Of a stretch of 64,000 nucleotides of DNA, positions 39,190 through 57,732 are shown one piece after another (position 1 is the stretch's first letter; each line of letters starts with the position of its first letter). The stretch lies in the NCBI RefSeq assembly GCF_900105215.1, contig NZ_FOIP01000002.1:1426001-1490000 (forward strand), given 5' to 3'. The translations under genes and the position numbers were made by a program. Below the pieces are notes generated by a model. The model searched no databases and was not told the DNA's origin. It saw nothing but the letters and a program-made list of their open reading frames with translations. Source of the DNA: Lacrimispora sphenoides (GTDB lineage Bacteria; Bacillota; Clostridia; Lachnospirales; Lachnospiraceae).

Positions 39190-40194
39190 TTATCTTTTAG
39201 AAGCGGACGCTGTATTCTGAGCCATAACTCCTACCAACTTGTGGGGAATATAGGGCTCCTCCAGATAAGCAGTTTCCTCTTTTGTCAGAACAATATCAAC
39301 AGCCTTTACTGCTCCTTCAATGTGATGAAGCTTTGTTGCACCTACTATCGAAGCGGTCACTTTTTGCAAAAGCCATGCTAGGGAAATCTCTGTCATAGAT
39401 ACTCCTCTTTCTTCTGCCAGCTTCGCAACGCGCTCAACGATAATATTGTCCTGTTCCACAGTAGAACCATATTTTTGTCTCGCATAGCTGTCCTCTATCA
39501 GCCGCCTGGAGCTTTCACCTATATATTTGGACAAGCGGCCACCTGCAAGAGTACTGTAGGGTGTCATAGCAATATTTTCTTCCTGACAATAAGGGACCAT
39601 TTCCCGCTCCTCTTCTCGGAAGATCAGGTTGTAATGTCCCTGTTCAGATACAAACTTTGCAAAGCCCTCTTTCTCTGCCAAAGCGTTAGCCTTTGCCAAC
39701 TGCCAGGCAAAGCAGTTGGAAATGCCGATATAGCGTGCTTTTCCGGCTTTAAGCATATTATTAAGCCCTTCCATAATTTCGTACAGCGGGGTCTGATAAT
39801 CCCACATGTGATAAATATATAAGTCCACATAGTCCATACCGAGATTTGCAAGGCTATTATTCAACATCCGCTCAATGTGCTGCCTACCAGAAATCCCGGC
39901 TACAATTTCTTCCTGTGTTCTGGGCAAAAACTTAGTCGCCACAACCACCTCGTCCCGTTTTACAAAATCCCGCAACGCCCGACCCAGATACTGCTCACTG
40001 GTGCCACTCTGATATGCAATGGCAGTATCAAAAAAATTGACACCCAGTTCCAATCCCCGTTTAATGATTTTACGGGAATGTGTCTCGTCGATTGTCCATG
40101 AGTGCTGACCATTATTGGCATCACCAAATCCCATGCAGCCCATGCAGATGCGAGATACTGTTAAGTCTGAGATTCCTAATTTTGCATATTGCAT
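39190..40194 (-). CDS. Aldo/keto reductase
   Basis: A 334-residue NADPH-dependent aldo/keto reductase. The catalytic tetrad is visible: D and Y in 'FFDTAIAYQSG', K in 'VVVATKF' and H in 'DLYIYHMWDY'. 'GISNCFAWQLAKA' and 'TASIVGATKLHHIEGA' contact the cofactor. AGGAGG precedes the start and lies inside the tail of the OLD-like fragment upstream. The substrate is unknown; the YajO/YdhF-like groups reduce aldehydes and ketones. Confidence 0.93.
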   Translation of the reverse strand: MQYAKLGISDLTVSRICMGCMGFGDANNGQHSWTIDETHSRKIIKRGLELGVNFFDTAIAYQSGTSEQYLGRALRDFVKRDEVVVATKFLPRTQEEIVAGISGRQHIERMLNNSLANLGMDYVDLYIYHMWDYQTPLYEIMEGLNNMLKAGKARYIGISNCFAWQLAKANALAEKEGFAKFVSEQGHYNLIFREEEREMVPYCQEENIAMTPYSTLAGGRLSKYIGESSRRLIEDSYARQKYGSTVEQDNIIVERVAKLAEERGVSMTEISLAWLLQKVTASIVGATKLHHIEGAVKAVDIVLTKEETAYLEEPYIPHKLVGVMAQNTASASKR

Positions 40195-40200
40195 AACCGC

Positions 40201-40359
40201 TTACCTCCTTTGTTGGGAATTTTTCGGTTTTGTTACTGCTCGTAAAAGATTATTCTTACCGCTGTTGTTTTCACCAATTAAAGCCGCAGTATCACTTAAA
40301 TGAATATCAATTTCCTTTAAATTCCGGTAGTTCTTAATTATCAGTCTTGATATTTTCAA
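40201..40359 (-). pseudogene. N-terminal fragment of an OLD-family ATPase/nuclease
   Basis: A 52-residue frame from a TTG start with GGAGG upstream. It reads 'LKISRLIIKNYRNLKEIDIH' then 'LSDTAALIGENNSGKNNLL', the N-terminus and Walker A (GENNSGKS type, here N for S) of OLD-like ATP-dependent nucleases. It ends after 'AVTKPKNSQQRR'. The remaining ATPase and Toprim parts are missing. A relic of a defence-type gene, now joined to the aldo/keto reductase leader. Confidence 0.65.
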
Positions 40360-40540
40360 AAAAGCACCTCCAACTATTATTTTTATACTTTCATGTTTTC
40401 GTCCTACAAAGCTGCTTCGTATTCATAAAAATGTTTTTATATTGTCTGTTATCCTTTGATACTTCAACACAACATTACCATTGAATTGCACATAATTGCA
40501 CATTATTGCTATTCTTAGTTTAAACATAATGTGCCTTAAA

Positions 40541-40732
40541 TCATAATATTTCCTGGACTCTCCCCACTTGTCCATTCGTTAACATTACTTTGATACCATG
40601 AGGGTGAAAGCTACTGTTTGTTAGTATTTTTCCAACGATTCCCTCTGTTAGTTTTCCGGTTCTTTGGTCAGATTTCAATACAATTTTTACTGTTGCACCT
40701 ATTTTAACATCAATTCTATTTTGTCCGTTCAT
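40541..40732 (-). CDS. ywbE: YwbE family protein
   Basis: A 63-residue protein that is a full-length member of the YwbE (DUF2196) family: 'RIDVKIGATVKIVLKSDQRT' then 'GIVGKILTNSSFHPHGIKVM' and 'GQVGRVQEIL'. It looks like a small KOW/SH3-like beta barrel. Function unknown. GAGGAG lies before the start. Confidence 0.88.
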   Translation of the reverse strand: MNGQNRIDVKIGATVKIVLKSDQRTGKLTEGIVGKILTNSSFHPHGIKVMLTNGQVGRVQEIL

Positions 40733-40791
40733 TTTTCTCCTCGTTTTACATCAGTCAGTTTATAATAAATTATTCTACACATTGAAGTTTA

Positions 40792-41010
40792 TTAAATTAT
40801 CTTTATGAAAAACATTTCCATAGGCTGCTTAAAATTGGGAACATTAATAATCAATCCTTCTGAATCATGATACCCTATTTTTCTATAGAAATGCTGTGCA
40901 TTTTCACCTACTTGAGCTGAAATCATAATTAATTCATATCCTGCTGACTTCATATTTTCTTACCAAAATTTCATAAGTTTACTACCATATCTTTTTACTT
41001 CCCATTATTG
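40792..41010 (-). pseudogene. C-terminal fragment of a GNAT acetyltransferase
   Basis: On the minus strand, 'EVKRYGSKLMKFW' is followed after a frameshift by 'MKSAGYELIMISAQVGENAQ' and 'HFYRKIGYHDSEGLIINV', ending at 40792. This is the acetyl-CoA binding and C-terminal half of a GNAT enzyme. The N-terminal half is missing and a frameshift lies near 40965. Confidence 0.65.
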
Positions 41011-41040
41011 CTATGAGATGGTTCTATTATATCAAATTAT

Positions 41041-41087
41041 TATAAATTATTCATTCTAAAAATGTAACGCTGTTTTACTAGAGTACA
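41041..41087. repeat. 47-bp dispersed repeat, copy 2
   Basis: 43/47 identical by eye to 33961-34007 in the same orientation. Here it lies just upstream of the GNAT fragment. Confidence 0.75.
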
Positions 41088-41119
41088 ACTTCATAACACG
41101 CTCTTTACCTTTGAAAGGT

Positions 41120-41202
41120 ATTGTCATTTTTTCTATCTCTATAGATGGTTTAAGTAACTTGAAAAAACGACAAAACTATTTCACTTTGTTTTGTCGTTTT
41201 TC
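41120..41202 (-). repeat. Dispersed terminator repeat, copy B
   Basis: Shares CTATAGATGGTTTAAG and the hairpin with copy A at 25870-25960. On the minus strand AAAAACGACAAAAC pairs perfectly with GTTTTGTCGTTTTT (41162-41201) and gives a good terminator. It follows a short minus-strand coding remnant ending '...DIKDFLGKILKNDKTK'. Confidence 0.75.
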
Positions 41203-41440
41203 AATATTTTTCCCAGAAAATCTTTGATATCGCTGCGGCTATTTTGAAATTCGCTTTTTAAGAAAATTTAGCTTATTTATGTCGAGCAATTATAAATGAA
41301 AAAATACTGGTTAATTAATTTGTACGCTGTCTAATTGCTTCATACCGTCGCGACACAGCTTATCCAAATTATTATTGAAATTATATCTGTCTTCGGCCCC
41401 GCGCGACTCTATATTTGAATATTTTTTATCTTTTTCTAAA

Positions 41441-42325
41441 TTAACGAGAGAATTTAAACAATCTTCCCTCGCGGTCGTCGCTTTCAGTATTTTTTCTGCC
41501 ATTTGCAAAATCCCTTGCGTTCATTCTTTTTCCGCCTTCTATTTGCACTTCCAGCAGCTCCACAATACCGTCGTCCGAGATCCTTGATTTAAAAATCTTT
41601 AATTTTCTGCCGTTTAAATAAGTAAACGCAGCCGGCACAGGTGAAAGCCCTCTGATTTTATCGTGTATTTCCTGCGTTGTCAGATTCCAGTCGATTTCGC
41701 ACATAGTATTATCTATTTTTCCCACGTAAGACGCGCCGTCATCAGGCTGTTTTTCTCGTTTCGCAGTCCCGCCCTGTATTTGCTCAAGCGTATCAATTAA
41801 TAATCTGCCGCCGATTTGCGCCAATTTATCGAGAAGCTCTCCATAAGTTTCGTTTTCGCCGATTTTAATTGATTCTTTAAGTATCATATCGCCCGTGTCT
41901 ATGCCCTCTTCCATATACTGAGTAGTGATCCCCGTGATTTTTTCGCCGTTAATAATCGCAGCGTTTATCGGCGAAGCTCCCCTGTATTTCGGTAGCAGCG
42001 ACCCGTGAACGTTTACGCAGCCAAGCTTCGGAAAATCCAAGACGTTTTTGGGTATGAGCTTCCCGTAAGCAACCACAACGATTATATCGGGATTAATTGA
42101 TTTTAACAAATCAAAAAATTCTTCGCCTTTTAAGCTTTGCGGTTGATAAACGGGAATATTCTCACCGGAGGCATATTCTTTCACGGGCGACGGGGTCAAA
42201 ATCATTTTTCTGCCCGCAGGTTTATCCGGCTGTGTGACAACCCCTGCGATATTATATTCATTTTTCACGAGATAGTCGAGCGAAATTTTTGCAAACTCAG
42301 GGGTTCCCATAAATAATACTTTCAT
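41441..42325 (-). CDS. fmt: Methionyl-tRNA formyltransferase, isolated copy
   Basis: A 294-residue Fmt. 'VLFMGTPEFAKISLDYLV' opens the Rossmann domain. The catalytic region is 'VNVHGSLLPKYRGASPINAA' with the key His, and the catalytic Asp is in 'GIDTGDMIL'. The C-terminal tRNA-binding domain includes 'LLEVQIEGGKRMNARDFANG'. The C-terminus after 'FANGRK' is unlike the usual end, and a frame change there would extend it, so a frameshift is possible. It is not next to def, rlmB or the sun gene as in the normal operon, and its codon choice differs from its neighbours; it may be a second, acquired copy. Confidence 0.87.
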   Translation of the reverse strand: MKVLFMGTPEFAKISLDYLVKNEYNIAGVVTQPDKPAGRKMILTPSPVKEYASGENIPVYQPQSLKGEEFFDLLKSINPDIIVVVAYGKLIPKNVLDFPKLGCVNVHGSLLPKYRGASPINAAIINGEKITGITTQYMEEGIDTGDMILKESIKIGENETYGELLDKLAQIGGRLLIDTLEQIQGGTAKREKQPDDGASYVGKIDNTMCEIDWNLTTQEIHDKIRGLSPVPAAFTYLNGRKLKIFKSRISDDGIVELLEVQIEGGKRMNARDFANGRKNTESDDREGRLFKFSR

Positions 42326-42628
42326 ATATTTTTGTCCTCGTCTTTATTCATTTCATCTACTTCTTCTTGTGATAATATAAATTACCTTCTACATTGACAA
42401 ATTACAAAGTCAGCGCAGTTAACATTTTTACTCTACTTAATAATAATACAAAAAAGAAATGCTTACAATATTTTTCTGACTTTGTTTCGTTTAAGATTAT
42501 AGCTTTCGTATATTATTGTGTTATATACCCTTTTCTCAAACCTATTTTGATACTTCAATAAGAACAGACCGCGAAAAATCTGGTTCTTTTTTACCGAAAA
42601 ATTTCGGCATTGGGAAAGATTTATAAAT
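42326..42628. other. Upstream region of fmt
   Basis: No gene. AAGAACAGACC...TCTGGTTCTTTTTT (about 42561-42592) forms a hairpin with a T-run on the plus strand, although no plus-strand gene precedes it. Box D of the repeat family lies at its right edge (42629-42645). Confidence 0.45.
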
Positions 42629-42645
42629 TATTTCAGTATTGTTAA
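42629..42645 (-). promoter_or_regulatory. Direct-repeat box D (orphan)
   Basis: On the minus strand TTAACA-ATACT-GAAATA, the same 6-5-6 direct repeat as boxes A-C and E. No convincing -10 lies at the usual 31 bases, and the next gene downstream is fmt, 300 bases away. Confidence 0.5.
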
Positions 42646-42672
42646 AGAGCAGCCTGCCACTATCTTCTGTCT

Positions 42673-42762
42673 TTAAAATCTGTCATCGGGCAAACAGACG
42701 GTAGTAATTGCAATCCCGGCAATCATAATAATTGCGGATATTGCCAATGCAATTTTTTTCAT
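42673..42762 (-). CDS. 29-residue single-span membrane peptide
   Basis: The peptide has a lysine-led hydrophobic span ('MKKIALAISAIIMIAGIAI') and a short tail ending 'CLPDDRF'. AAGGAGAAC lies upstream of the ATG. It begins 35 bases after the stop of the 88-residue protein gene and should share its transcript from promoter C. Function unknown; it resembles the 27-residue peptide at 43884 in design. Confidence 0.55.
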   Translation of the reverse strand: MKKIALAISAIIMIAGIAITTVCLPDDRF

Positions 42763-42797
42763 TCCATGTTCTCCTTTGTAGTCATTGGATAGTATTC

Positions 42798-43064
42798 TTA
42801 CTTTTCCTCCGAATCCACTTCTTCAAGAAATGCATCGACAAATTTTTCTTCGATTTTTTTATACCCGTCAACCACACTATCTTCAATCTTCTGGTAGGCC
42901 CCGACCACCTTCTCTGCTGTCGCACCGGTTTTCAGAGTATAGCCCTGCTCGCTATTCTCATCTTTCTCCAGGAAGGCATCACAGAATTCCTCCTCTATGC
43001 CCTTATACGCGTCAACTACTCTCTGTCCCACTTTTCCAACTTTTAACCGATAGTTTTTACTCAT
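42798..43064 (-). CDS. 88-residue protein with duplicated KIE/DAFLE repeats
   Basis: A soluble, acidic, helical protein with an internal duplication. 'RVVDAYKGIEEEFCDAFLEK' (residues 15-34) matches 'SVVDGYKKIEEKFVDAFLEE' (61-80); a partial third copy is 'KVVGAYQKIED'. It is the small 'VVxxYKKIE' family found beside two-component systems in Lachnospiraceae, with no known function. AAGGAG precedes the start. Promoter C, with its direct repeats, lies upstream. Confidence 0.75.
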   Translation of the reverse strand: MSKNYRLKVGKVGQRVVDAYKGIEEEFCDAFLEKDENSEQGYTLKTGATAEKVVGAYQKIEDSVVDGYKKIEEKFVDAFLEEVDSEEK

Positions 43065-43132
43065 ATTTTTCTCCTTTTCATGCTTTTAGTTGCAAGATTA
43101 AGGCTTTACACCTGTTCTTGTCTGTTAAAGCA

Positions 43133-43186
43133 ATCGTAACATTCCAATGTTGCTAAATTGCTTGTAATTTATTTGAGTATTGTTAA
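43133..43186 (-). promoter_or_regulatory. Promoter C with four direct repeats
   Basis: Read on the minus strand: TTAACA (43181-43186), CAAATA (43170-43175), then CAAGCA and GCAACA, each starting 11 bases after the last. TACGAT (43133-43138) is the -10, 31 bases after the second hexamer. There is no good -35, which suggests an activator-dependent promoter. It drives the 88-residue and 29-residue proteins. Confidence 0.7.
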
Positions 43187-43211
43187 TTCGATACATCCGG
43201 TCTACTTCCGG

Positions 43212-43249
43212 TAAAAAAGAAAAACCTGCTGGAGCTGTCCGGCAGGTTT
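43212..43249 (-). terminator. Terminator after the 122-residue protein gene
   Basis: On the minus strand AAACCTGC pairs with GCAGGTTT (12-base loop), followed by a T-rich run (TTTTCTTTTTT). Confidence 0.85.
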
Positions 43250-43271
43250 ATGATGTAAAAACAGTTTTCAT

Positions 43272-43640
43272 TTATTTAATGCCGATGCAGAGAGGGATTA
43301 AACATAACAGCATCAATACTCCGACCAGCCCAACCAAAATACCGACCATAATGTTACTCCATACCATAACTAAACACATTCCGACTCCAAGTGTCAGTGA
43401 ACTGAGTATGCCCAATAAAATAATACCAATGAGTTTCCCGCTGATTTTGATGGGAGCTTTGTTTTCCATTTTTCGCCACACACCAACCGTACACAGTGCC
43501 AGGATAATACCGATGCAACCAATCACTACACCTGGTGTAAATGCATTCCATTCCGGCAACATAGCCATACACATTCCGATTCCTAAAAACAAACTGCTGA
43601 TGATCCCTAACACCAATGCGATAAAACTACTCTTTTTCAT
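43272..43640 (-). CDS. 122-residue membrane protein with internal duplication
   Basis: Four predicted membrane segments in two similar halves: 'LGIISSLFLGIGMCMAM' (residues 11-27) and 'LGILSSLTLGVGMCLVM' (76-92) each precede a second hydrophobic span. No known domain. AGGAGG precedes the start. It is monocistronic, between promoter B and a strong terminator. Confidence 0.75.
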   Translation of the reverse strand: MKKSSFIALVLGIISSLFLGIGMCMAMLPEWNAFTPGVVIGCIGIILALCTVGVWRKMENKAPIKISGKLIGIILLGILSSLTLGVGMCLVMVWSNIMVGILVGLVGVLMLLCLIPLCIGIK

Positions 43641-43696
43641 ACTGAACCTCCTAATTTTTTATTTATTATTTTTATATGTTTCGTTGTTATATGCTT

Positions 43697-43750
43697 ATTA
43701 TAAAGTTCTTTTATTTGAGATTTGCTTCTGTTTTGTTTGAATTCTGTTAA
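43697..43750 (-). promoter_or_regulatory. Promoter B with four direct repeats
   Basis: Minus strand: TTAACA (43745-43750), CAAACA (43734-43739), then GAAGCA and CAAATA, all at 11-base steps. TATAAT (43697-43702) lies 31 bases after the second hexamer. It drives the 122-residue membrane protein gene. Confidence 0.75.
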
Positions 43751-43883
43751 TTTGATTTTATATACCATATTAGATATCACTTGTCGAAGCCCACAAAATC
43801 GTTTCAGATCTACCGGCAGATGATTGGGCAGATTTCTTTTTCACAAAAAACAACTGCACCGGCAACCACTGCGGCAATTGCTG

Positions 43884-43967
43884 CTACAATAACTTTATTC
43901 TGATTACAATTCCAATGACTGCTGCCACTCCAGCCACTGCAATTACTGCTACCGCCTTTTTCTTCAT
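43884..43967 (-). CDS. 27-residue single-span membrane peptide
   Basis: The peptide is 'MKKKAVAVIAVAGVAAVIGI' followed by 'VIRIKLL'. AAAGGAGG lies before the ATG. Directly beyond the stop, another frame continues as a second hydrophobic stretch ('NKVIVAAIAAVVAGAVVF') down to about 43815, so the original gene may have been longer and lost its end by a frameshift. Promoter A lies upstream. Confidence 0.5.
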   Translation of the reverse strand: MKKKAVAVIAVAGVAAVIGIVIRIKLL

Positions 43968-44041
43968 GCTTTATCCTCCTTTGTGTTTTCTTTAATTAAC
44001 AGGTGAGACTTTCTTTTATCTATCCCCTATCTGATGTTTTA

Positions 44042-44095
44042 ATTATGCAATACCGATATTGCTGTTTTGTCTGAATTATGTTTTAGTATTGTTAA
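44042..44095 (-). promoter_or_regulatory. Promoter A with four direct repeats
   Basis: Minus strand: TTAACA (44090-44095), AAAACA (44079-44084), then CAGACA and GCAATA, at 11-base steps. CATAAT (44042-44047) is the -10, exactly 31 bases after the second hexamer. It drives the 27-residue peptide gene. Confidence 0.7.
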
Positions 44096-44110
44096 TTCTA
44101 TTTATCTGAT

Positions 44111-44145
44111 AAAAAAGAGCCCTGGGAGTATTCCCAGAACTCTTT
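44111..44145 (-). terminator. Terminator of the two-component operon
   Basis: On the minus strand an AGAG/CTCT plus CTGGGA/TCCCAG stem is followed by TTTTTT. It ends the RR-HK-177-309 operon 30 bases after the last stop and isolates promoter A. Confidence 0.85.
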
Positions 44146-44175
44146 AAGCCTCCGCTGCCAGCCGGAAGACCGATT

Positions 44176-45081
44176 CTATTCCATTTGAGCCAATTGTTTC
44201 CCTGCTGAACGGATCATATAAATCCCCATGAGTAAAATCATCAGGCAAACGACTCCCCCAGTCAGCAGATTCATTGCTCTTGTATCCGTTCCATCACCAA
44301 ACGAAACAAACATCGCTGTCTGCAGGGAAAACAGCGACACCAATGCATCTGCATAACCAATATTGTGGATCATACGTAACAGCGGCGAATTCATTTTCCC
44401 TACCTTAAACATATGAAACACGGCAATGCCTATCTTATAAAACGTGTAGGCGGCAACTGCAAAAATCAATGTTCCCGGATAGTTCTTACCCTGTTCGTAA
44501 AAGACCATCTGGATTACCGATACGATAAGAGCAAAAGTCAGAACAATAAACAGAATACCGCTGTTGCGGAAGGCATACAGTTCTTTTCGCTTCACCATTT
44601 GATCATGTTCGGTGTTGCGATGTCTTCTCTCATACCGGATAGCAACAAATCGCATTACACTGAGAACCAGATAATATCCGGATAAAGCCCCGAACCAGAC
44701 CGAACGATGCACAATCCCAAACACTCCGTTACTCAAGGCAAACAGCAGGTTGACCGCCAAAGATGAATGAACAAACAGCACCGTTCGGTACCGGTAATCA
44801 GAAGCCACCCGGCAGGTAAACGTATTTGATTCAATCCCCGGCTTTATCTTCTCTTTCATTCCATACCGCAGATCCTGAATCAAATAGCAGCATGACAGTG
44901 CCAGCCCGCATCCGGCGGCAACATAAATAGCAGTCTCAATAATCTTGTGAAAAGAATGAAACAATACCGCCGCCAGGGAAAAGCCTGATAACAGGAGCGT
45001 AAAAAAGTAAAGCAGAATCCGGAACGGCCACTTAAGGGCCGGGAGCCTTATTCTTTTTCTGCTGTTCGTTTGTTTCTCCAT
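44176..45081 (-). CDS. Polytopic membrane protein of the two-component operon
   Basis: A 301-residue protein with about eight hydrophobic segments and no family I can name. Landmarks are 'FRILLYFFTLLLSGFSLAAV', 'VNLLFALSNGVFGIVHRS', 'GYYLVLSVMRFVAIRYE' and 'TGGVVCLMILLMGIYMI'. A start 24 bases upstream (overlapping the previous gene) is possible; GGAGG nine bases before 45081 favours this one. It is the last gene of the operon. Possible roles: sensor accessory, transporter or membrane-stress effector; not determinable from sequence. Confidence 0.75.
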   Translation of the reverse strand: MEKQTNSRKRIRLPALKWPFRILLYFFTLLLSGFSLAAVLFHSFHKIIETAIYVAAGCGLALSCCYLIQDLRYGMKEKIKPGIESNTFTCRVASDYRYRTVLFVHSSLAVNLLFALSNGVFGIVHRSVWFGALSGYYLVLSVMRFVAIRYERRHRNTEHDQMVKRKELYAFRNSGILFIVLTFALIVSVIQMVFYEQGKNYPGTLIFAVAAYTFYKIGIAVFHMFKVGKMNSPLLRMIHNIGYADALVSLFSLQTAMFVSFGDGTDTRAMNLLTGGVVCLMILLMGIYMIRSAGKQLAQME

Positions 45082-45097
45082 TTCAGAAAGCCCTCCG

Positions 45098-45631
45098 CTA
45101 ACCATTCCCCAACAAATGATTTCCTTTCTCGCAAACCGTATGAATCTCCTCGTACTTTGCTTCGATCAATGGTGCCACCATTCCATTCCGTTTCTTTAGC
45201 ATAAAGTTATATACAAAATACGGTGTTATCCAGCCCATAAATCCTGGTATTGCCAGCAGGATACACAGCCAGACGATTGGCGGCTGGTTAACTGCCGCAA
45301 ATGTGGCACCGGCCATAAAAGCAGTTCCTATCAATCCGATTGTCAGTGCTGCCATGACTGCAGTCTGGTGTTTTGACTTCTCCATCCCATCGATCTGCTT
45401 CATGCAATCCTCAAAATTTTGCTGCAGCCTGGTCAGTTCTGCCTTGTTAATGATTTTCCGGTCACGCTTCAGCCGCAGAATGGTATTTCCTTTTTCTTTA
45501 ATTTGATGGTTTTCAATCGGCAACCAGCCAAAATTCTCATAGCCATCCAGATACTGAGATATCTGGCCGCTCTCAACCACCACTTCTTTATATTCATATC
45601 CTATATAATCTCTCTGTCTCATATTCTCCAT
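45098..45631 (-). CDS. 177-residue membrane protein of the two-component operon
   Basis: It has a soluble N-terminal part ('GYEYKEVVVESGQISQYLDG', 'GWLPIENHQIKEKGNTILRL'), a coiled-coil-like helix ('AELTRLQQNFEDCMKQIDGM') and two hydrophobic spans ('ALTIGLIGTAFMAGATFAAV', 'VWLCILLAIPGFMGWITPYF'). It has no named family. It lies 52 bases after the kinase gene and just before the polytopic protein. The coiled coil and paired spans suggest a complex with it. Confidence 0.75.
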   Translation of the reverse strand: MENMRQRDYIGYEYKEVVVESGQISQYLDGYENFGWLPIENHQIKEKGNTILRLKRDRKIINKAELTRLQQNFEDCMKQIDGMEKSKHQTAVMAALTIGLIGTAFMAGATFAAVNQPPIVWLCILLAIPGFMGWITPYFVYNFMLKKRNGMVAPLIEAKYEEIHTVCEKGNHLLGNG

Positions 45632-45683
45632 ACCTGATTACCTCACTTCTACTTTCTCCTGAGCTCTTGCATAGGGTATTTCC

Positions 45684-46763
45684 TTATTTTCTGGTTCTGC
45701 TGACTGGTAAACGAACCGTAAACTCAGATCCTTTCCCTAGTTCGCTCTCAACAAAAAACGTTCCGCCTGCCAGCTCCACTACCCGGAACGCTAGTGCCAG
45801 GCCGAGTCCGTTTCCTTCCATAGAATGAGAGGTATCCCCCTGATAGAATTTATCAAAGATATGATTGATGGTTTCCTTTGTCATTCCGCAGCCGGTATCA
45901 CGAACCGATACCACCACCTCATCTTTTGTTGATGTCTGCCGAAGAGTCACTGTCCCGCCCGGCTCCGTAAACTTTATCGAATTAGATAATAAATTATTCC
46001 ATACCAGTTCCAGCAGGCTTGGGTCCGCTTCAATGTTTGCCCGGTCCTCCAGATCTGCATCCATTTCAATCTGCTTCTCTTCCCATAGTTCTTCAAACTG
46101 CAATGTACACTCACATAGCTGCTTACACAGGTCATAGGATTCCATTACCGGCTGGATATTCTGCTTTTCCAGTTTATTCAGCTTTAGTATGTTGGTGATT
46201 AGCTTGGATAGCTTCCGGGAAGATTGAATGATCGTTTTAATATATTCCTGCTTAACCTCCTCCGGTAAATCCGGATTCTGTATGCTCTGAGCATAGTTTT
46301 GAATAACTGCCAGAGGTGTCTTGATCTCATGGGAAACATTGGAAAAGAAATCCGTCTTCAGTGTTTCGATGCTTCCCAACTCCTCCACCATTTTATTAAA
46401 GTCCATGAACATAACATCCAGATAGTCCAGCTGGTCCACCGTATGTTTCGCCGGAAGGTAGACCGAGAAATCCCCATGAGCAACGGCATTAGCAGCCTTC
46501 GCCAGTTCCTTCATAGGGGCTTCATAAATCTTCCGGATCTGATATCGGACAAACAAGGTAAAGTTGATAGATATCACGAACCAGTAAGCCATGATAATTG
46601 TGGTTGCAATACCACCTTGCATTTCCATTCTGGTCATTAAAACGGTAAGGCCGCTGTGAACTCCGGATACAAGAAGAACGGTCAGCATGATCTTCCAGAA
46701 CAATGACATGGAAAACAGGGATTGCTTGACTTTATATTCTTTTCCTGCAGTCTGCTGTGTCAT
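45684..46763 (-). CDS. Sensor histidine kinase of the small-protein regulon
   Basis: A 359-residue kinase with two membrane segments (residues 20-43 and 54-73) joined by a very short loop, so it probably senses events in the membrane itself. HAMP lies to about 128. HisKA has H145 in 'NVSHEIKTP'; HATPase has 'WNNLLSNSIKFTE', 'DTGCGM' and 'GNGLGLALAFRVVE'. Its ATG overlaps the regulator stop by ATGA. The intramembrane-sensing layout resembles kinases that respond to envelope damage or peptides. Confidence 0.93.
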   Translation of the reverse strand: MTQQTAGKEYKVKQSLFSMSLFWKIMLTVLLVSGVHSGLTVLMTRMEMQGGIATTIIMAYWFVISINFTLFVRYQIRKIYEAPMKELAKAANAVAHGDFSVYLPAKHTVDQLDYLDVMFMDFNKMVEELGSIETLKTDFFSNVSHEIKTPLAVIQNYAQSIQNPDLPEEVKQEYIKTIIQSSRKLSKLITNILKLNKLEKQNIQPVMESYDLCKQLCECTLQFEELWEEKQIEMDADLEDRANIEADPSLLELVWNNLLSNSIKFTEPGGTVTLRQTSTKDEVVVSVRDTGCGMTKETINHIFDKFYQGDTSHSMEGNGLGLALAFRVVELAGGTFFVESELGKGSEFTVRLPVSRTRK

Positions 46764-47431
46764 TGCTGTACCGCCTTATAACCCAATCCACGAATTGTCA
46801 CAATTTTAAACCCATCGCACACGGAAAATTTATCCCGCAGCTTGGTAATATACACATCCACGGCTCTTAAATTGGTTTCTGTATCAACGCCCCAGAATTC
46901 GTCCATCAGCTGCACCCGGGAAAAAGTCTTATTCGGATAAGAAAGCAGCTTATATAAGATATTGAACTCCCTGGTTGTTGTAGGGACCTCTTCACCTTCA
47001 ACGACAGCCGACATGGCATCCGCATCCAGCTCCAGGTTTCCAACGGCAATTTTTCGTTCCGTCTCGATATTGGCTCTTCGCAGCAATGCCCGGATCCGAA
47101 GTAACAATTCATCAAATTCAATCGGTTTTACCATATAGTCATCAATCCCCAGCTGAAAGCCTTTCTGCTTTGAGGGTAAATCATCCTTGGCCGACATAAA
47201 CAGGATCGGGATGGTTTTATTCACTTGCCGAACCGTTCTGGCAAACTCAAAGCCATCAATCTCCGGCATCATAATGTCCGAGACGATCAGCTCAAACATG
47301 TTATTATACATTGCATCATAAGCTTCCTGTGCCTTCAGGCATCCTTTCGCCTGAAATCCGCTGTTGTTTAAATAAGAACAGACAATTCGATTCAAATTTA
47401 CGTCATCTTCTATTACCAGAATATTAATCAT
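46760..47431 (-). CDS. OmpR-family response regulator of the small-protein regulon
   Basis: A 223-residue regulator with phospho-acceptor D52 ('LIVSDIMMPEIDG'), K in 'DDYMVKPIEF', and a C-terminal winged helix ('EFNILYKLLSYPNKTFSRVQ', 'RAVDVYITKLRDKF'). First gene of the operon. OmpR-type regulators bind direct repeats with 10-11-base spacing, which is exactly the pattern seen upstream of this gene (box E) and three small-protein promoters. Confidence 0.95.
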   Translation of the reverse strand: MINILVIEDDVNLNRIVCSYLNNSGFQAKGCLKAQEAYDAMYNNMFELIVSDIMMPEIDGFEFARTVRQVNKTIPILFMSAKDDLPSKQKGFQLGIDDYMVKPIEFDELLLRIRALLRRANIETERKIAVGNLELDADAMSAVVEGEEVPTTTREFNILYKLLSYPNKTFSRVQLMDEFWGVDTETNLRAVDVYITKLRDKFSVCDGFKIVTIRGLGYKAVQQ

Positions 47432-47458
47432 ATCTATTCTCCTTACGGTTTTTTCTTG

Positions 47459-47490
47459 ATTATAACATCCAATTGTTTGAGAATTGTTTA
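47459..47490 (-). promoter_or_regulatory. Autoregulated promoter E of the two-component operon
   Basis: Minus strand: TAAACA (47485-47490), ATTCT, CAAACA (47474-47479), then TATAAT (47459-47464) nine bases on. The box occupies the -35 position, unlike promoters A-C where it lies 31 bases from the -10. This suggests a different mode (activation from the -35 or feedback). Confidence 0.65.
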
Positions 47491-47910
47491 AGTTTGAAGA
47501 TTTTTGAACGGATTTTCAATCTTTTTTAGCTTTCACATATTTTAGGCTTCTAAGCAAGGAAATACCGCTGCTTGCCTGTGATAAGTATGATAAAAATGCT
47601 TTCCGGGGTATTTTTCTGTCTCTTCTACTTTCATTCTGCCTGATGTTTATCTGTTCTTTTTTCTCATCTCTTCCATAAAATAAGCCGTCAAGGAGAAAAC
47701 ATCGCCCTGACGGCTGTAAATACAAAAATTCAATTAAATACTAGCCTCTCAACAGTTTCTACTCGTATACAGAATCACTAATCATCTCTTTCTGTATCTT
47801 CTCCGCTATCTTCTCATGGATATTTTTCTACGTATAACTTCTCTCCCATTACAAAGGACAATTCTTTCATTGAGCCTTTAAGACATTTTACAAACGAGCA
47901 ATCCAATAAT
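47491..47910. other. Intergenic region between the regulon and the glycan locus
   Basis: No supported gene. AGCCGTCA and TGACGGCT (47683-47715) can form a stem with a long loop. A 69-codon minus-strand frame across it has no ribosome binding site or recognisable content. Confidence 0.4.
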
Positions 47911-49488
47911 TCAATCAAACGTCTCTACTGTAACTTCATTTGTAATAAACCGATATTTAAAACGCACAGCCATATTATCTTTCTCCGTGGTAAAATGCGC
48001 CTTATTGCCTGAGCCGCTTCTGGGATATCTGTCTTCCTGATAGGTAGCTGACAACGTTCCGTAAGTCGCTACCGAATAATCATATGTTCCTGCAAACGGT
48101 ATCACCACAGATAATGTATAGGTGTTGTCACCTATGTAATACATCCGGGTCACTTCGCTGTTAGAATCATTTTTTACTGCCCCCACATGAGGCTGAAAAC
48201 TTCCATATACCACAATTTTCTCCGGCAGCTTCATTCCGGTCGTTTCATCATAGACTTCTCCGGCTCCATAGCGGATGAGCATCTCAGGATTGGCCGCTTT
48301 TTTTCTCAATTCATGTTCAGTGGCCCATAACCGCTTCGCTGTCTCCTCCTGACTGAATCCCATGGGGCAATTGGAACTCTTCCGGTTTATCTGATAAAAA
48401 TTCTGACGGTCTGGTTCCCCGTTGTCAGCTCTTATTCCTGTGACCGCCCCATCTCCCAGCATCCGGCGAAATGGCAGTTCAAAGTAAGCATTGAGATTAT
48501 TAATCTCTGTCCATTTGTAAGTATACTCCAGAAAGTGATTTCGGCTCTCTTCTGACTGATTGGCAAACCAGGCAATCTGATCATATCCCCACCAATCCCT
48601 CCATGCCAGCTCTTCTCTTGAATAGGAATCCCGGTCTTCCACCACTAATCCGCCCCAATTATCATACTCCATCAAATAAGGCATAGTGTCTGCAGACCAT
48701 CCATTGGGATTTTCTCCCCCTTCACTGTAACCCTCTCTCACCAACACCAGCTTCTCTCCGGGTACTTCCAGAAGTGGAACTCTGGTAAAAGGCATTGCGT
48801 GATAGTCAAACAGCAGCTTTCCACGGATATTTACGCCATGGGTATGGGCATCCAGAAGCACCTTGTGCCGTCTCCCATGCAATCTGGCATATTCCCGTAT
48901 CATTGCAAAAAGCCGCGCTGTCTTTTCCATACCCGGATCATGAGCTGTGTATAGGTGCACCTGTCCCATATGCAAAGCTTCATACCCACAGTCAATATAT
49001 CTGGTTGCACGGTAATATAACCACATCTGCGCTTCCTGGCGGGACAGATCCGGGATACCTCCATTTTTAGACGGATCTTCTCTGCGGCTTATATAACCAG
49101 ATGATTCATCCGTAAACAATGCCTCCTGCATCCGAAAGGTTCTCTCTTCCGGCTTCATCCCAAAAGCTTTGAATACATAGTCCGGTATCCTGATATCCTC
49201 CATCCGCTCCACAATCCACTCAAACACGCAGGCCTGAAGAATAATCTCAGGATCTACAGTATGGACTTTATCCGCCAGTTCTCTGGAAAGACGAAAATGC
49301 TCTTCGTCCTCCATTGGCATATACCAAATACCGGATGCCCTTCCCAGAAATTTTACGCCCATCTCTTTGATAACGCGCAGATCATCTGTAAGGGTTTTGC
49401 TTTCGAATAATCCTGCTGCAGTTACGCAGCGGGACAGATAGTTCTCCAACACTTCCCTTGATATCGTTTCATAAAATACAAAATCCAT
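47911..49488 (-). CDS. 525-residue protein of unrecognised family in a glycan operon
   Basis: No named family. The sequence reads like an (alpha/beta)8 enzyme with an added beta domain. Segments such as 'RVIKEMGVKFLGRASGIWYM', 'IILQACVFEWIVERM', 'HKVLLDAHTHGVNIRGKLLF' and 'LMEYDNWGGLVVEDRD' resemble barrel strands ending in acidic residues. The C-terminal 130 residues ('PEKIVVYGSFQPHVGAVKND' and on) look like a beta-sandwich. No signal peptide, so it acts in the cytoplasm. It overlaps the GH38 gene by 20 bases. A new glycoside hydrolase or a sugar-binding partner is likely by context only. Confidence 0.75.
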   Translation of the reverse strand: MDFVFYETISREVLENYLSRCVTAAGLFESKTLTDDLRVIKEMGVKFLGRASGIWYMPMEDEEHFRLSRELADKVHTVDPEIILQACVFEWIVERMEDIRIPDYVFKAFGMKPEERTFRMQEALFTDESSGYISRREDPSKNGGIPDLSRQEAQMWLYYRATRYIDCGYEALHMGQVHLYTAHDPGMEKTARLFAMIREYARLHGRRHKVLLDAHTHGVNIRGKLLFDYHAMPFTRVPLLEVPGEKLVLVREGYSEGGENPNGWSADTMPYLMEYDNWGGLVVEDRDSYSREELAWRDWWGYDQIAWFANQSEESRNHFLEYTYKWTEINNLNAYFELPFRRMLGDGAVTGIRADNGEPDRQNFYQINRKSSNCPMGFSQEETAKRLWATEHELRKKAANPEMLIRYGAGEVYDETTGMKLPEKIVVYGSFQPHVGAVKNDSNSEVTRMYYIGDNTYTLSVVIPFAGTYDYSVATYGTLSATYQEDRYPRSGSGNKAHFTTEKDNMAVRFKYRFITNEVTVETFD

Positions 49489-52400
49489 CTATCGTTTCCT
49501 TTCTTAATTCCAGTTCCAGCAACAAAGTCTTTATTTCATAAGGCTTCAGCTGTACTTGAATCTCTCCTGGGTTAAACGTTGTCTCCTCTTCCATCAGATT
49601 ACACTCACACCATTGTACCACCGGCAGTCTGCTGCTGATTTTCACATCGCATCTTCTGCCCTCAAACTCATGGAAGCGTAGTATGATGCGTTCTCCGTTT
49701 TCTTCGCGTTTCAGCGCATCCACAACCAGATTCTCCTGATTAAATGAAATCCAGCTCTCACTTCCCAGTCTGTTTTGACCCGGCTTTCCGGTCAGCGGAT
49801 TATTTAAATCAAATGCCTGCTGCTCAATGCCCGCCTCATACCATTCCTTATCATGAGGCAGAATAGCATACGTAAATTCATGAGTTCCAAGGTCTGCCGT
49901 ATAATCAGGATCCACTGCCGATTTTAAAAGAGTCAGGCGGATGGTATCCTCTTTCACATCGTGGCCATACTTGCAGTCATTCAACACGGCCATTCCATAG
50001 CCGGTTTCCCAGATATCCACCCATTTGTGAGCTGCCACCTCAAACTTAGCAGCTTCCCAGGTCGTATTTCTGGTAATCGGCCTGCGGATATTTCCATTTT
50101 GAATATCAAACCGGGCATCTACCGCACGTACATCCACGGGAAAGCTGGCCTTTAACAACTTCTGACGCTCTTGCCAGTCTACGATCGTCTTAAAATCAAT
50201 CCGCGGACTTTCTTCATACAGGCACACCGTCTGCCAAATTCGGGATTTATGATACAGCCAGGTAAACTCCACTTCCCAGCCCAGACTGTGTTTTCTGGTA
50301 TTGACTTCAATGCAGTTCTCCACTGTCTCTCTTTTTAAGTCAATGGTAGGCTCCAGTTCCCAGGCGTCAAAACATCTGGGTTTGTCTTCAAACATCTGAA
50401 GTACGTTGGCGCATTTCCCTTCCGGAAGAACTTCCCGCTCCGCTTTTTTATCGTAGATACGGTTCAACTGACCCTTCTCATTCCACGAAATCGTGTAAAA
50501 TGGCGTTTCAATCTGAGATGCTCCTACCTTAGAATCTGAAAGCTCCGCATTGGTATGCCCGGCCTTATTGGTCACCAGGCGGAACGTGGAAAATGAGAAT
50601 GGCTGTATCTGGAAAATCCATATAAGCACCCCGTTTTCTTTCCAGACTGCTTTTACTTCCTGACCGTCTTCATCTATCACCATATACCCTTTATAATGAG
50701 AAAGCTCTGTATCGGTCATACGGAAAAGAGCTGCCCCGCTTCTCACCCAGTTCGAGTTATTGAACACCGTATAACATCCTGCTTCCGGTGCATAAAGCGC
50801 CTGATTCACCGCTTCCATGGTTTCCTTTATCAGCTGCAGGGCCCGGCCGTATTCCACATGGCTGTCCTCATACACTTCTTTAATAGCTGAGCCTGGAAGA
50901 ATATCGTGGAACTGATGACACAGCACAATTTTCCACGCTTTTAAAAGATTATTATAATCATAAGGTACTCCCGCAGTTACCCTGGCCAGTACCGAAAGTA
51001 TCTCTGTATCACGAAGAAGATATTCCATTCTCCGGTTCATCTTCTTATTGTAGGCCTGAGAAGTATAGGTCCCCCGGTGAAACTCCAGATACAATTCGCC
51101 ATCCCACACGGGAATATAGCCAGCCATAGGATTTTCTTTCAATGTTCGGTTTAGACGGCGGAAATATTCCGTAGGCATCTCCATCTTTACATGGGGCAGA
51201 CCGGGAATCTTGCCAGCGGCTTCTGCCTGTTTTATCTGGGTTCTGGTAGGGCCGCCTCCCCCATCACCGAATCCAAAGGAAATCAGCAGATCTTTATTGG
51301 TATCCTTATTTTTATATTGCTCCCACACACCCTTTATGGCGTCCGGACTGGTATTGCCGTTATAGGTATAGTAGTCCTCTCCCGGATCTGTTGTTGTGAT
51401 AAAATGGGCCGTCACTTCAGTTCCGTCCATTCCTTTCCAGCGGAAGGTATCATAAGGCAGACGATTGGTGTCGTTCCAGCTTATTTTTGTGGTCATAAAT
51501 GTATCTATCCCCGATTTTTTTAAAATCTGGGGCAGTGCCCAGGAGTATCCGAACACATCCGGGAGCCATAAGTATTCGCTTTCATAACTGAATTCCTCTC
51601 TGAAGAAATTTTTTCCAATAAGAATCTGACGAATGATAGATTCTCCGGAAGCTAAGTTGCAGTCACACTCCACCCACATGGCTCCGGAGGGTTCCCATCT
51701 TCCCTCTTTCACACGCTTTTGAATATATGTATAGATATCAGGATAATCTTCCTTGATAAACTCGTATAACTGTGCCTGTGTCTGAAGAAACCGATATTCA
51801 GGATACTTCTCCATAAGCCGGTTCACGGTAGAAAATGAGCGTGCAGCCTTTTCTCTTGTATGGCGCAGCCGCCACAGCCAGGCCACATCGATGTGCGTAT
51901 GTCCGATCAGACTTACGTTCACGTCCGGCTTTCCCCTGCCATCCATCTTTGAGTCAAGAAACTGCCAGGCCCTTTTCACAGTCTCATAAAATTCTTCACT
52001 ACCGGGCTCTGTAAAGTTAATCTTGGTAAAAGTATGGACCAGAATATTTAAGATCCATTCTTTATACTCATTTCCCACCGGCAGCAAGTCATAAGTCTCA
52101 AGTGCCGCCTTTGCAAGATAATACAGATCATCTGTGGGATGATCAAGAATTCCTATCTGCGCCCGGCGGATTTCCATCATCTTTTCCTCAGGAATTCCGC
52201 CGCCGCTTAGTCCCGACCACAGACGAAATTTCAGCTCCTGGGAATAGCCATTTACTGCCGGCTCCAAAAACACTTCATGGTGATTTCCATCCACTGCCTG
52301 ATAAGGCTTTCCGTTTAAGTACAGTAAACTCTCGAAATCCCCGTTATTTCCTGTTCCGGTCCGGGCACCGAAGTCAAACAGTCCCAGTACCTCTTTAGCT

Positions 52401-55983: not shown

Positions 55984-57732
55984 TTATTTATAAAATGTTA
56001 CTGATTCCGGATTTTCATCGTAAACTTTTTTCACATGATTTTCAAATCTTTCCACACCTGCTGCTTTAAGCTGTGCACGGAAGGACTCAATAATGGATTT
56101 TACCTCATCATCTGATTTTGCGAAGCATGCCTGTATGAAGGTTTCCTTCCAGTCCAGAAGCTCCATCTGCATCTTAACATCCGCCAGTTCATCTGCTGAT
56201 AAGTAAGCCGTGGCATCAAGCCCCGGAACCAGTTTCTTTTCCACCGGATAATCCCTGGCAATCGTTACACTTCTTGCGAAAGCGGACTCACCTGCGGATG
56301 CACCGGGACGTGGCTCCCCAAAGTTATCAATGTTGTTTTTATTGGTCAGAACAAATTCAAAAAAGTAATTTCCTGAACCGCCAAGGCCTGAACCAACGGT
56401 ATTAATCAGATAATCGGTATCGCCATCATTCAACTTTTTGACAACCTCATCCTTTAGCCGCGGATAGCCGTCTACCATGTCATAGGATACTCCCTCAGCA
56501 CCATACTGGGCGATGATCTGTCCTTCCTTTGTGGACAGCCAGTCAAAGAATTTGAAGATCTCTTCCGGATTCTCAGCATTTGCAGAGATTGCCATACATC
56601 CACGGTGAGACTTTCCGTGTACCACTTCCTTGTTGTCTCCCTGAATATCATTCAACGGGCCAAGTGGTACCCAGTCATCACTTCCATATACGATTTCTTC
56701 ATAGTTATGAACATCTGCCATGATTGCCGAGCTGTGGTTTCTGGAAACTTCTTCTGCACGGGTGGAATCCATGGTAAAGAACTCAGGATTCATAAGTCCT
56801 TCGTTAAGAAGTTTTCTTACAAAGTTAATCTGGTCATAGGCATAATCTGTTTCAGCAATATGTTTTACTTTTCCATCTGTATCCAGATTATAATTATCAC
56901 TGACACCCCAATGATATCCGGCGGTGATGAATTTCAGGGGATCTGCAGAACCACCCCAGTATTTCGGCCCCAATGGATATACATCATTGCCGTTATCATC
57001 CTTAAAGCCGCCTTCTTTAATCTTAACCAGCAGGTTATAAAAGTCGTCCTGTGTATTAATTGTTCTCGGATCAATACCAAGTGCCTCAGCAATGGCAGAC
57101 TGGATGTACATACCGCCCACATACTCTTCCTCCGCATTGTATTCCAGAGAACGGTCAATCTCGTCGATATTCATCTGCCACATATAGACACCGTCCAGAT
57201 TTTTTCTGAACACAATATTATCATGGGTATCCTGCGGAAGGTAACCATCTTCATAATATTTGGAATAGACCTTACTGTTCTTCATATAATCGGAAACATC
57301 TGCAAACATGCCATCCTTGGCAGCCTTATACAGCAGTGGGAATTCCTTTCTTGTGGAGTCATCCAGATAGCTGACAATCACATCTGGGATGGTTCCTGAT
57401 GCAAATTGGGAAGCCATTACTTTTGAGTCACTGTCTCCGGGTGTATATCGGACATCCAGTTTAATGCCCGTCAGCTCCGTAATCTTCTTCATTGTTTCCG
57501 TGTTGTTAATATCATCCGGAAGCGTATTCCCGATATCATCCACATAGGCTTGAACCGTAATGGTACGGTCTGCAATCCAGGTATCTGGCTTATTGGAAGA
57601 ATCTGTGCTGCTTCCTTCGCTCTTTGCAGTACTGCTGCTGTTACCCTGGCTGCTGCATCCTGCCAGCGTGGTCAAAGCCATGGCTCCGGCCATAGACACT
57701 GCCAGCCAATGTTTTAAGGTTTCCCTTTTCAT
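55984..57732 (-). CDS. Extracellular solute-binding lipoprotein (oligosaccharide)
   Basis: A 582-residue lipoprotein with signal peptide and lipobox 'LTTLAGCSS'. Then comes a Ser-rich linker and a family 1-like substrate-binding domain of the long LipO/YtcQ type that pairs with LplB/LplC permeases. 'FKFFDWLSTKEGQIIAQYGA' and 'GVSYDMVDGYPRLKDEV' are typical of the group. It sits on the outer face of the membrane and delivers glycans to the permeases encoded on both sides of it. Confidence 0.93.
   Translation of the reverse strand: MKRETLKHWLAVSMAGAMALTTLAGCSSQGNSSSTAKSEGSSTDSSNKPDTWIADRTITVQAYVDDIGNTLPDDINNTETMKKITELTGIKLDVRYTPGDSDSKVMASQFASGTIPDVIVSYLDDSTRKEFPLLYKAAKDGMFADVSDYMKNSKVYSKYYEDGYLPQDTHDNIVFRKNLDGVYMWQMNIDEIDRSLEYNAEEEYVGGMYIQSAIAEALGIDPRTINTQDDFYNLLVKIKEGGFKDDNGNDVYPLGPKYWGGSADPLKFITAGYHWGVSDNYNLDTDGKVKHIAETDYAYDQINFVRKLLNEGLMNPEFFTMDSTRAEEVSRNHSSAIMADVHNYEEIVYGSDDWVPLGPLNDIQGDNKEVVHGKSHRGCMAISANAENPEEIFKFFDWLSTKEGQIIAQYGAEGVSYDMVDGYPRLKDEVVKKLNDGDTDYLINTVGSGLGGSGNYFFEFVLTNKNNIDNFGEPRPGASAGESAFARSVTIARDYPVEKKLVPGLDATAYLSADELADVKMQMELLDWKETFIQACFAKSDDEVKSIIESFRAQLKAAGVERFENHVKKVYDENPESVTFYK

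What the first reader, a model, noticed from the sequence alone, without database searches (positions are those of the whole stretch)
42629..47490. A two-component regulon readable from repeated direct repeats
Five boxes of the form TTAACA-N5-(A/C/G)AAA(C/T)A lie on the minus strand at 42629, 43170, 43734, 44079 and 47474. Three of them (43170, 43734, 44079) extend to four hexamers at strict 11-base steps and have a -10 (TACGAT, TATAAT, CATAAT) exactly 31 bases after the second hexamer, with no usable -35. One lies over the -35 of the response regulator's own promoter. The 11-base direct repeat is the standard geometry for OmpR-type regulators, and an OmpR-type regulator is encoded here. Together they predict one autoregulated circuit controlling several tiny proteins.
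Basis: partly seen in the sequence, partly recalled or inferred. Interest (0 to 1): 0.8.

Follow-up and report, generated by a model that had tools for sequence, protein, structure and literature searches.

The report
Conserved four-repeat regulon of two-component regulator
A cluster of small membrane-protein genes is preceded by a fixed pattern of four evenly spaced DNA repeats that very probably bind the regulator encoded beside them; the same pattern and genes recur, patchily, in many gut-type Clostridia, so this is an apparently undescribed signalling circuit of a known general type.

Summary
Three minus-strand promoters (array starts 43186, 43750, 44095) carry four hexamers at exact 11-base steps, 9 bases before a -10 (31 after hexamer 2). 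The regulator's own promoter is a half array (hexamers 3 and 4, same 9-base spacer). The 42629 box is only a two-hexamer remnant. In this 5.93-Mb genome the full geometry with up to 3 mismatches gives 5 hits: these three, plus two at control level (3).

In 80 loci with regulator orthologs (72-84% identical), a matrix built only from the three window arrays finds, at 20 bits or more, 118 sites in 67 loci, all on the regulator's strand, none in controls. Arrays precede the same gene families, and in 295 genomes they co-occur with the regulator (12 of 16 with it, 6 of 279 without).

Best reading: an autoregulated OmpR/PhoB-type two-component system activates a mostly local membrane-protein regulon through promoters built like Bacillus subtilis PhoP promoters. 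It does not look like the phosphate system. The signal is unknown; membrane or envelope stress is my inference. Known in kind; the regulon and its families were not found characterised in the papers searched. DNA binding is not shown.

The parts
46760..47431 (-). Response regulator, 223 aa, OmpR/PhoB type
   Evidence: Pfam PF00072 and PF00486; 80 orthologous loci at 72-84% identity, the best 80 of 543 found
45684..46763 (-). Histidine kinase, 359 aa; HisKA + HATPase_c, HAMP just under its cut-off (24.8 against 25); hydrophobic segments 14-35 and 50-74, about 14 residues apart
   Evidence: Pfam; hydropathy, which also flags 320-338 inside the ATPase domain; homolog in 79 of 80 loci
45098..45631 (-). 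P177: uncharacterised membrane protein, N-terminal beta-alpha-beta-beta domain then a long helical hairpin
   Evidence: No Pfam or NCBIfam match at E<=0.001; found in 79 of 80 loci; AlphaFold2 mean pLDDT 82.5; no PDB match at E<=0.001
44176..45105 (-). P309: membrane protein resembling the cation-diffusion-facilitator fold, apparently without its metal site
   Evidence: Pfam Cation_efflux 31.7 bits over the cut-off of 26.6 for the window copy, but no Pfam match for the three relatives' copies scanned (L037, L061, L094); Foldseek ZnT7 E 3.1e-4, the one match at E<=0.001; no His or Asp among 21 invariant columns of 20 sequences
43884..43967 (-). 27-aa hydrophobic peptide ORF with Shine-Dalgarno, 128 nt after the start of array 44095
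   Evidence: translation not shown
43272..43640 (-). P122: 122 aa, four hydrophobic segments, target of array 43750
   Evidence: 3638 homologs among 3768 candidates, no Pfam domain in the 120 listed; an array within 600 nt upstream in 43 of 45 relatives' copies
42798..43064 (-). P88: 88-aa protein with amphipathic-looking repeats, target of array 43186
   Evidence: 119 homologs among 146 candidates; an array within 600 nt upstream in 35 of 39 relatives' copies
42673..42762 (-). 29-aa hydrophobic peptide ORF with Shine-Dalgarno, next after P88
   Evidence: translation not shown
44042..44095 (-). Array 1: TTAACA, AAAACA, CAGACA, GCAATA at 11-base steps, N9, CATAAT
   Evidence: 37.1 bits; 3 mismatches
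43697..43750 (-). Array 2: TTAACA, CAAACA, GAAGCA, CAAATA, N9, TATAAT
   Evidence: 44.4 bits; 0 mismatches
43133..43186 (-). Array 3: TTAACA, CAAATA, CAAGCA, GCAACA, N9, TACGAT
   Evidence: 43.1 bits; 1 mismatch
47459..47490 (-). Half array of the regulator's own promoter: TAAACA-N5-CAAACA-N9-TATAAT
   Evidence: the one exact match in the genome (with one mismatch allowed 3 matches, control 3); best score in the window (35.5) on the columns not used for selection
42629..42645 (-). Two-hexamer box without hexamers 3-4 or -10; probable remnant
   Evidence: (6.2 bits)

Best explanation
The regulator (46760-47431), once phosphorylated by the adjacent kinase, binds head to tail along four 11-base repeats covering about -60 to -22. 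It recruits sigma-70 polymerase to promoters that have a -10 but no -35. It switches on at least three short transcription units (27-aa peptide; P122; P88 plus 29-aa peptide) and its own operon through a half array. Shown: the arrays, their geometry, their rarity in this genome, their recurrence in relatives and their co-occurrence with the regulator. Inferred: binding, activation rather than repression (from the -60 to -22 position replacing the -35), and the signal. The kinase has almost no extracytoplasmic part and the targets are membrane proteins, so I think the signal is membrane or envelope perturbation (about 0.5), perhaps sensed with P177 and/or P309.
For: In 80 ortholog loci (1.08 Mb) exact two-hexamer boxes number 44 on the regulator strand, 0 on the other, controls 2 and 2. 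A matrix from the three window arrays alone gives 118 + / 0 - / 0 control hits at >=20 bits in 67 of 80 loci. Of 89 distinct sites selected on hexamers 1-2 only, 88 are on the + strand; TANNNT lies at offset 48 in 79 and at no other offset in more than 10; hexamers 3 and 4 fall at offsets 22 (58) and 33 (65). Arrays (>=20 bits, ortholog matrix) lie within 600 nt upstream of 43 of 45 P122, 35 of 39 P88, 9 of 10 DRP-like and 6 of 7 epimerase copies, but 0 of 79 kinases and 3 of 81 P177. Across 295 genomes arrays are in 12 of 16 with a regulator (E<=1e-80) and 6 of 279 without, Fisher p 4e-14. In ten regulator-bearing genomes there are 31 matches against 2 in the control (eight of the ten were chosen because one search had already shown an array). 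Of 12 arrays on other contigs, far from the regulator or in regulator-free genomes that I looked at, 6 precede P88, P122 or epimerase genes.
Against: No binding, expression or phosphorylation data. Fisher's test ignores kinship, and only the 10 best first-look candidates per genome were scored. On the columns not used to choose sites, arrays 43186 (18.2) and 44095 (12.3) do not exceed the best control place (18.6); 43750 (28.0) and the half array (35.5) do. At lower thresholds the window matrix also hits the other strand and controls (>=12 bits: 199 +, 17 -, 26 control). Four regulator-bearing genomes (G066, G077, G087, G168; 61-66% identical) have no array at one mismatch, though two equally distant ones (G182, G204) do. 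Only 26 of 78 relatives' regulators have a full array within 600 nt, so direct autoregulation by a full array is not universal; in others it may run through P309 (27 of 46). Activation is not separated from repression by sequence.
Confidence: 0.85

Rival explanations
1. The arrays belong to the phosphate (Pho) regulon: this is the organism's PhoP/PhoR and the boxes are ordinary Pho boxes.
For: Bacillus subtilis Pho boxes are direct repeats of TT(A/T/C)ACA with 5 +/- 2 base spacers (PMC3036859, passage seen). Best NCBIfam hits of regulator and kinase are PhoB and PnpS models.
Against: The PhoB, PnpS and PhoR hits shown are far below their curated cut-offs (for example 172 against 270 and 197 against 400, best 25 of 90 and of 86 shown). 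Two pst-phoU clusters of this genome (L121, L122; two of the four PhoU-domain proteins found) show no array above the thresholds used (full >10, half >18 bits). None of the families recognised is a phosphate-uptake gene.
Confidence: 0.05
2. The arrays are bound by another transcription factor and are merely linked to this two-component system.
For: Linkage and co-occurrence do not prove binding; related regulators abound (79 first-look candidates in G000, 72 scored), among them a 64% identical paralog with similar boxes.
Against: No other DNA-binding domain was recognised among the seven window proteins scanned; relatives' flanks were not exhaustively annotated. The four-by-11 geometry fits this protein class (PMC4415409). 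Arrays also occur away from the cluster before the same families in regulator-bearing genomes.
Confidence: 0.07
3. The repeats are chance or A-rich promoter background.
For: The hexamers are A-rich; the two-hexamer box alone is near background genome-wide (20 against 14); some matches in regulator-free genomes are low-complexity (for example G027, G296).
Against: 1000 shuffles reach at most 12.2 bits against 37-44. At >=20 bits the ortholog matrix gives 128 + and 3 - with no control hit.
Confidence: 0.01

Closest known systems
Bacillus subtilis PhoP (PhoPR) promoters
   Same: TTAACA-like hexamers repeated with about 5-base spacers on promoters (PMC3036859, passage). Four repeats over about -60 to -20 is recalled from work of Hulett and co-workers, whose 1999 paper is not held.
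   Different: Hexamers 2-4 here are mostly (C/G)AAACA and only hexamer 1 is TTAAYA; the targets seen are not phosphate genes; the kinase is short and lacks a recognised sensor domain.
Escherichia coli PhoB and PHO box
   Same: Tandem head-to-tail binding to 11-base direct repeats by an OmpR/PhoB-type regulator (PMC4415409, passages).
   Different: Repeat letters differ; four repeats instead of two; no pst linkage in the window cluster.
WalR/YycF (WalRK)
   Same: OmpR-type regulator of envelope genes with hexamer repeats; predicted YycF sites in Staphylococcus epidermidis include TTAACA-type pairs (PMC5405149, passages).
   Different: YycF model far below cut-off (130.5 against 340); different cluster and targets.
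Paralogous system in the same genome (G000:C1:75059-75721, L123)
   Same: Regulator 64% identical; its promoter reads TTAACA-N5-TTAACA-N9-TATAAT.
   Different: Two TTAACA boxes instead of CAAACA; lies beside what reads like an ABC-type efflux operon (my reading of ORF starts).

Membership tests
OmpR/PhoB-type two-component system | Receiver domain plus winged-helix C-terminal domain | tested here: met
   PF00072 3.1e-24 and PF00486 2.1e-18
OmpR/PhoB-type two-component system | Cognate histidine kinase encoded beside it | tested here: met
   HisKA and HATPase_c; homolog in 79 of 80 loci
OmpR/PhoB-type two-component system | 11-base direct repeats at target promoters | tested here: met
OmpR/PhoB-type two-component system | Regulator binds the repeats and is activated by phosphorylation | not testable with these tools
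   needs protein and DNA in vitro
PhoP/PhoR phosphate system | Curated PhoB/PhoR model cut-offs | tested here: not met
   best regulator hit 172.3 against 270; best kinase hit (PnpS) 197.2 against 400
PhoP/PhoR phosphate system | Arrays at the phosphate transport genes | tested here: not met
   none above threshold in L121 and L122, 12 kb each around two pst-phoU clusters; two further PhoU-domain places were not examined
WalR/YycF | Curated YycF model cut-off | tested here: not met
   130.5 against 340
Cation diffusion facilitator (for P309) | Transporter fold and family profile | tested here: inconclusive
   window copy 31.7 bits over 26.6 and Foldseek ZnT7 E 3.1e-4, TM about 0.5, but three relatives' copies gave no Pfam match and NCBIfam CDF is below cut-off (21.6 against 82.35)
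Cation diffusion facilitator (for P309) | Conserved His/Asp metal site (motif recalled) | tested here: not met
   no His or Asp among 21 invariant columns in 20 sequences

The most novel reading that the evidence does not exclude
An undescribed membrane-stress system scattered across Lachnospirales and other Clostridia. A kinase with almost no outside domain would be governed by P177 and by a metal-site-less CDF-like protein (P309) acting as sensors. A rigid four-hexamer promoter code would then switch on very small hydrophobic or amphipathic proteins (27-29 aa peptides, repeat-bearing P88, P122) that remodel or shield the membrane, with lipid and efflux genes (cardiolipin synthase, HpnA-like epimerase) recruited in some species.
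Probability: 0.3. Interest if true: 0.65.

Novelty: new member of a known kind. Interest (0 to 1): 0.48.

Why it matters
It gives a sequence code, readable without experiments, that assigns protein families without known function and with thousands of homologs (3519 for P177, 3638 for P122) to one regulon in gut-type Clostridia. The code makes predictions that a gel shift, a reporter or one RNA-seq experiment can test.

Tried and rejected
Pho regulon membership: rejected on model cut-offs and on absence of arrays at two pst clusters.

Full function for all five boxes: rejected for 42629.

P177 fold: no PDB match at E<=0.001. An impression that its N-terminus resembles DUF4177 is recalled and not supported by Pfam.

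Rfam: nothing at gathering threshold in 40000-50000. The sigma-70 scan was not above shuffles (19 against 16.8) and the terminator scan only weakly (9 against 5.1), so I do not lean on either.

Literature: searches for TTAACA + PhoP + direct repeat (0 papers), Lachnospiraceae + response regulator + direct repeat + 11 bp, CAAACA + two-component + Clostridium + response regulator and Lachnospiraceae + two-component system + OmpR family + regulon + binding motif found nothing on this system. In the listings I saw only papers on other regulators. Passages were read in PMC4415409, PMC3036859, PMC13403408 (nothing on the repeat consensus) and PMC5405149; the rest were seen as listings and abstract starts.

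Selection bias: the first matrix was built from 42 distinct sites chosen by the window's first two hexamers, so I repeated the test with a matrix from the window arrays only, with the columns outside the selecting hexamers, and with selection blind to the -10. Rows dropped: repeated 75-base sites and sites closer than 75 bases to a contig end, for the 'of n' counts, gene copies within 500 bases of a contig end. One search used 10 of the 17 other genomes then known to bear a close regulator (15, plus G001 and G008); the four without arrays (G066, G077, G087, G168) and G182, G204 and G271 were left out.
Full report
What is there. On the minus strand, reading down from 47490, the order is: half-array promoter; response regulator (46760-47431); kinase (45684-46763); P177 (45098-45631); P309 (44176-45105). 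Then come three units, each headed by a full array: a 27-aa ORF (43884-43967), P122 (43272-43640), and P88 (42798-43064) followed by a 29-aa ORF (42673-42762). Start codons lie 128, 110 and 122 nt after the starts of arrays 44095, 43750 and 43186, and 59 nt after the start of the half array at 47490.

The geometry. The three arrays are TTAACA followed by three A-rich hexamers at 11-base steps, then 9 bases, then CATAAT, TATAAT or TACGAT. The regulator's promoter has only hexamers 3 and 4, in the same register to TATAAT. On the matrix columns that were not used to choose sites, it is the best place in the window (35.5 bits), followed by array 43750 (28.0); the control maximum is 18.6. Arrays 43186 (18.2) and 44095 (12.3) do not exceed that control on those columns alone. 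The half array is the one exact match in the genome to AAACA-N6-AAACA-N9-TATAAT; with one mismatch there are 3 matches and 3 in the control. The 42645 box lacks hexamers 3-4 and a -10.

Chance and rarity. Over the whole matrix, 1000 shuffles reach at most 12.2 bits, against 37.1-44.4 for the arrays. Genome-wide the two-hexamer box alone is near background (20 against 14), but the full pattern at up to 3 mismatches has five matches: the three arrays (0, 1 and 3 mismatches) and two others at 3 mismatches that fit the control count of three. In this genome the regulon with recognisable full arrays is therefore local, within 1.0 kb. Degenerate or half-array targets elsewhere cannot be excluded.

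Recurrence. The best 80 of 543 loci encoding a relative of the regulator came from public contigs, mostly metagenome-assembled Lachnospiraceae, Oscillospiraceae and other Clostridia. Exact boxes are 44 on the regulator strand and 0 on the other. A matrix made from the three window arrays alone finds 118 sites at >=20 bits in 67 of 80 loci, none on the other strand and none in reversed controls; at >=12 bits the figures are 199, 17 and 26. When sites are chosen by hexamers 1-2 only, 79 of 89 have TANNNT exactly 31 bases after hexamer 2. The consensus in relatives is TTAAYA-N5-(C/G)AAACA-N5-CAAACA-N5-CAAACA-N9-TATNNT.

Targets in relatives. Of 131 arrays at >=20 bits by the ortholog matrix, 115 have a gene of a recurrent family within 500 nt downstream: P88 34, P309 27, regulator 27, P122 17, HpnA-like epimerase 7, P122-like DRP 2, P177 1; 16 are unassigned. 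Unassigned arrays include ones before a RelA/SpoT-domain protein, an ABC ATPase, a radical SAM protein, a CmpB-like membrane protein and a chemoreceptor-like protein. One array before a P88 gene (L038) also has a cardiolipin synthase ORF beginning 405 nt after it. Short hydrophobic peptides of 28-44 aa come first after arrays in L056, L094, L077 and L132, like the 27-aa ORF here. Kinase (0 of 79) and P177 (3 of 81) rarely have arrays of their own, as expected for genes inside the operon.

Co-occurrence and spread. The system is patchy: 16 of 295 genomes of the order carry the regulator at E<=1e-80 (10 best candidates scored per genome), and 2 of 24 same-genus relatives carry an ortholog at 74-75%. 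Arrays with at most one mismatch are in 18 of the 295; they overlap with the regulator in 12 (p 4e-14, no correction for kinship). The reversed control gives 14 matches in 12 genomes, so the six genomes with array and no regulator are at background. Yet two of them (G234, G294; 85-90% complete) have the array before P122 or P88 genes, so they are probably real, with the regulator missed or missing from the assembly. The four regulator-bearing genomes without an array have distant regulators (61-66%), but two as distant (G182, G204) have arrays. In ten regulator-bearing genomes, eight of them chosen for an array already seen, two mismatches give 31 matches against 2 in the control; at least two of the 31 (G191 C7 and C43) look low-complexity. 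I looked at the genes after 12 arrays that lie on other contigs, away from the regulator or in G234 and G294: six precede P88, P122 or epimerase genes; others precede what read like an efflux membrane-fusion protein, an outer-membrane-efflux-like protein and a lipoprotein (my reading of first residues), and some have no clear target.

Mechanism. An array spanning about -60 to -22 that replaces the -35 is the layout of activated promoters of PhoB/PhoP-type regulators (recalled), which bind 11-base repeats head to tail (PMC4415409, passages). Bacillus subtilis PhoP uses TT(A/T/C)ACA repeats with 5 +/- 2 base spacers (PMC3036859, passage). So it works like a PhoP promoter. It is not the phosphate system as far as tested: the models fail their cut-offs and two pst clusters carry no array.

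Signal. The kinase has two hydrophobic segments about 14 residues apart and no recognised sensor domain; a HAMP match is just under its cut-off. P177 accompanies it in 79 of 80 loci and is predicted as a small beta-alpha-beta-beta domain on a long membrane hairpin. P309 resembles the CDF/ZnT fold, though relatives' copies miss the Pfam model, and has no invariant His or Asp, so metal transport is doubtful. I infer membrane or envelope stress with P177 and/or P309 as accessory sensors; this is the weakest step.

Paralog. A 64% identical regulator elsewhere in the genome has TTAACA-N5-TTAACA-N9-TATAAT in its own promoter and a further TTAACA-N5-TTAACA pair at L123:10189, about 100 nt upstream of a 409-aa ORF that reads like an efflux membrane-fusion protein. 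Its region corresponding to the DNA-recognition helix (recalled assignment) is LRTVDVYITKLREKF against LRAVDVYITKLRDKF here. Cross-talk is possible.

Verdict. The addition here is that the code recurs with the regulator across an order and predicts the same target families. It is a new, apparently undescribed member of a known kind.

Noticed in passing
window 44176-45105 (P309) and relatives in alignment A2: CDF/ZnT-like membrane protein without conserved His/Asp; the window copy has an HNIGYAD stretch that relatives replace. Possibly a sensor derived from a transporter.
   Followed up: partly
L123 (G000:C1:69000-82000), regulator at 6060-6722 minus: Paralogous two-component system beside what reads like an ABC-type efflux operon, with TTAACA-N5-TTAACA repeats at its own promoter and at L123:10189.
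   Followed up: partly
window 43884 downwards (minus strand): Directly after the stop of the 27-aa ORF a hydrophobic open stretch continues in another reading frame; its status is unclear.
   Followed up: no
window 42798-43064 and relatives (for example L036:6017-6289): Relatives' P88 proteins are made of repeats of 11 residues (VVGGYKKIEEG-like), suggesting a membrane-surface amphipathic helix.
   Followed up: no
L038:7449-7814, L124:4100-4450 and L078: A second small membrane family (about 116-125 aa) that looks similar to P122 in its C-terminal half occurs in some relatives and has an array within 600 nt upstream in 9 of 10 copies.
   Followed up: partly
window 57493-57509 minus: Lone exact TTAACA-N5-GAAACA match with no array; consistent with chance.
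   Followed up: yes
window 47911-49488 minus: 525-aa protein with a pullulanase X25-like domain just upstream of the regulator's promoter; no array.
   Followed up: no
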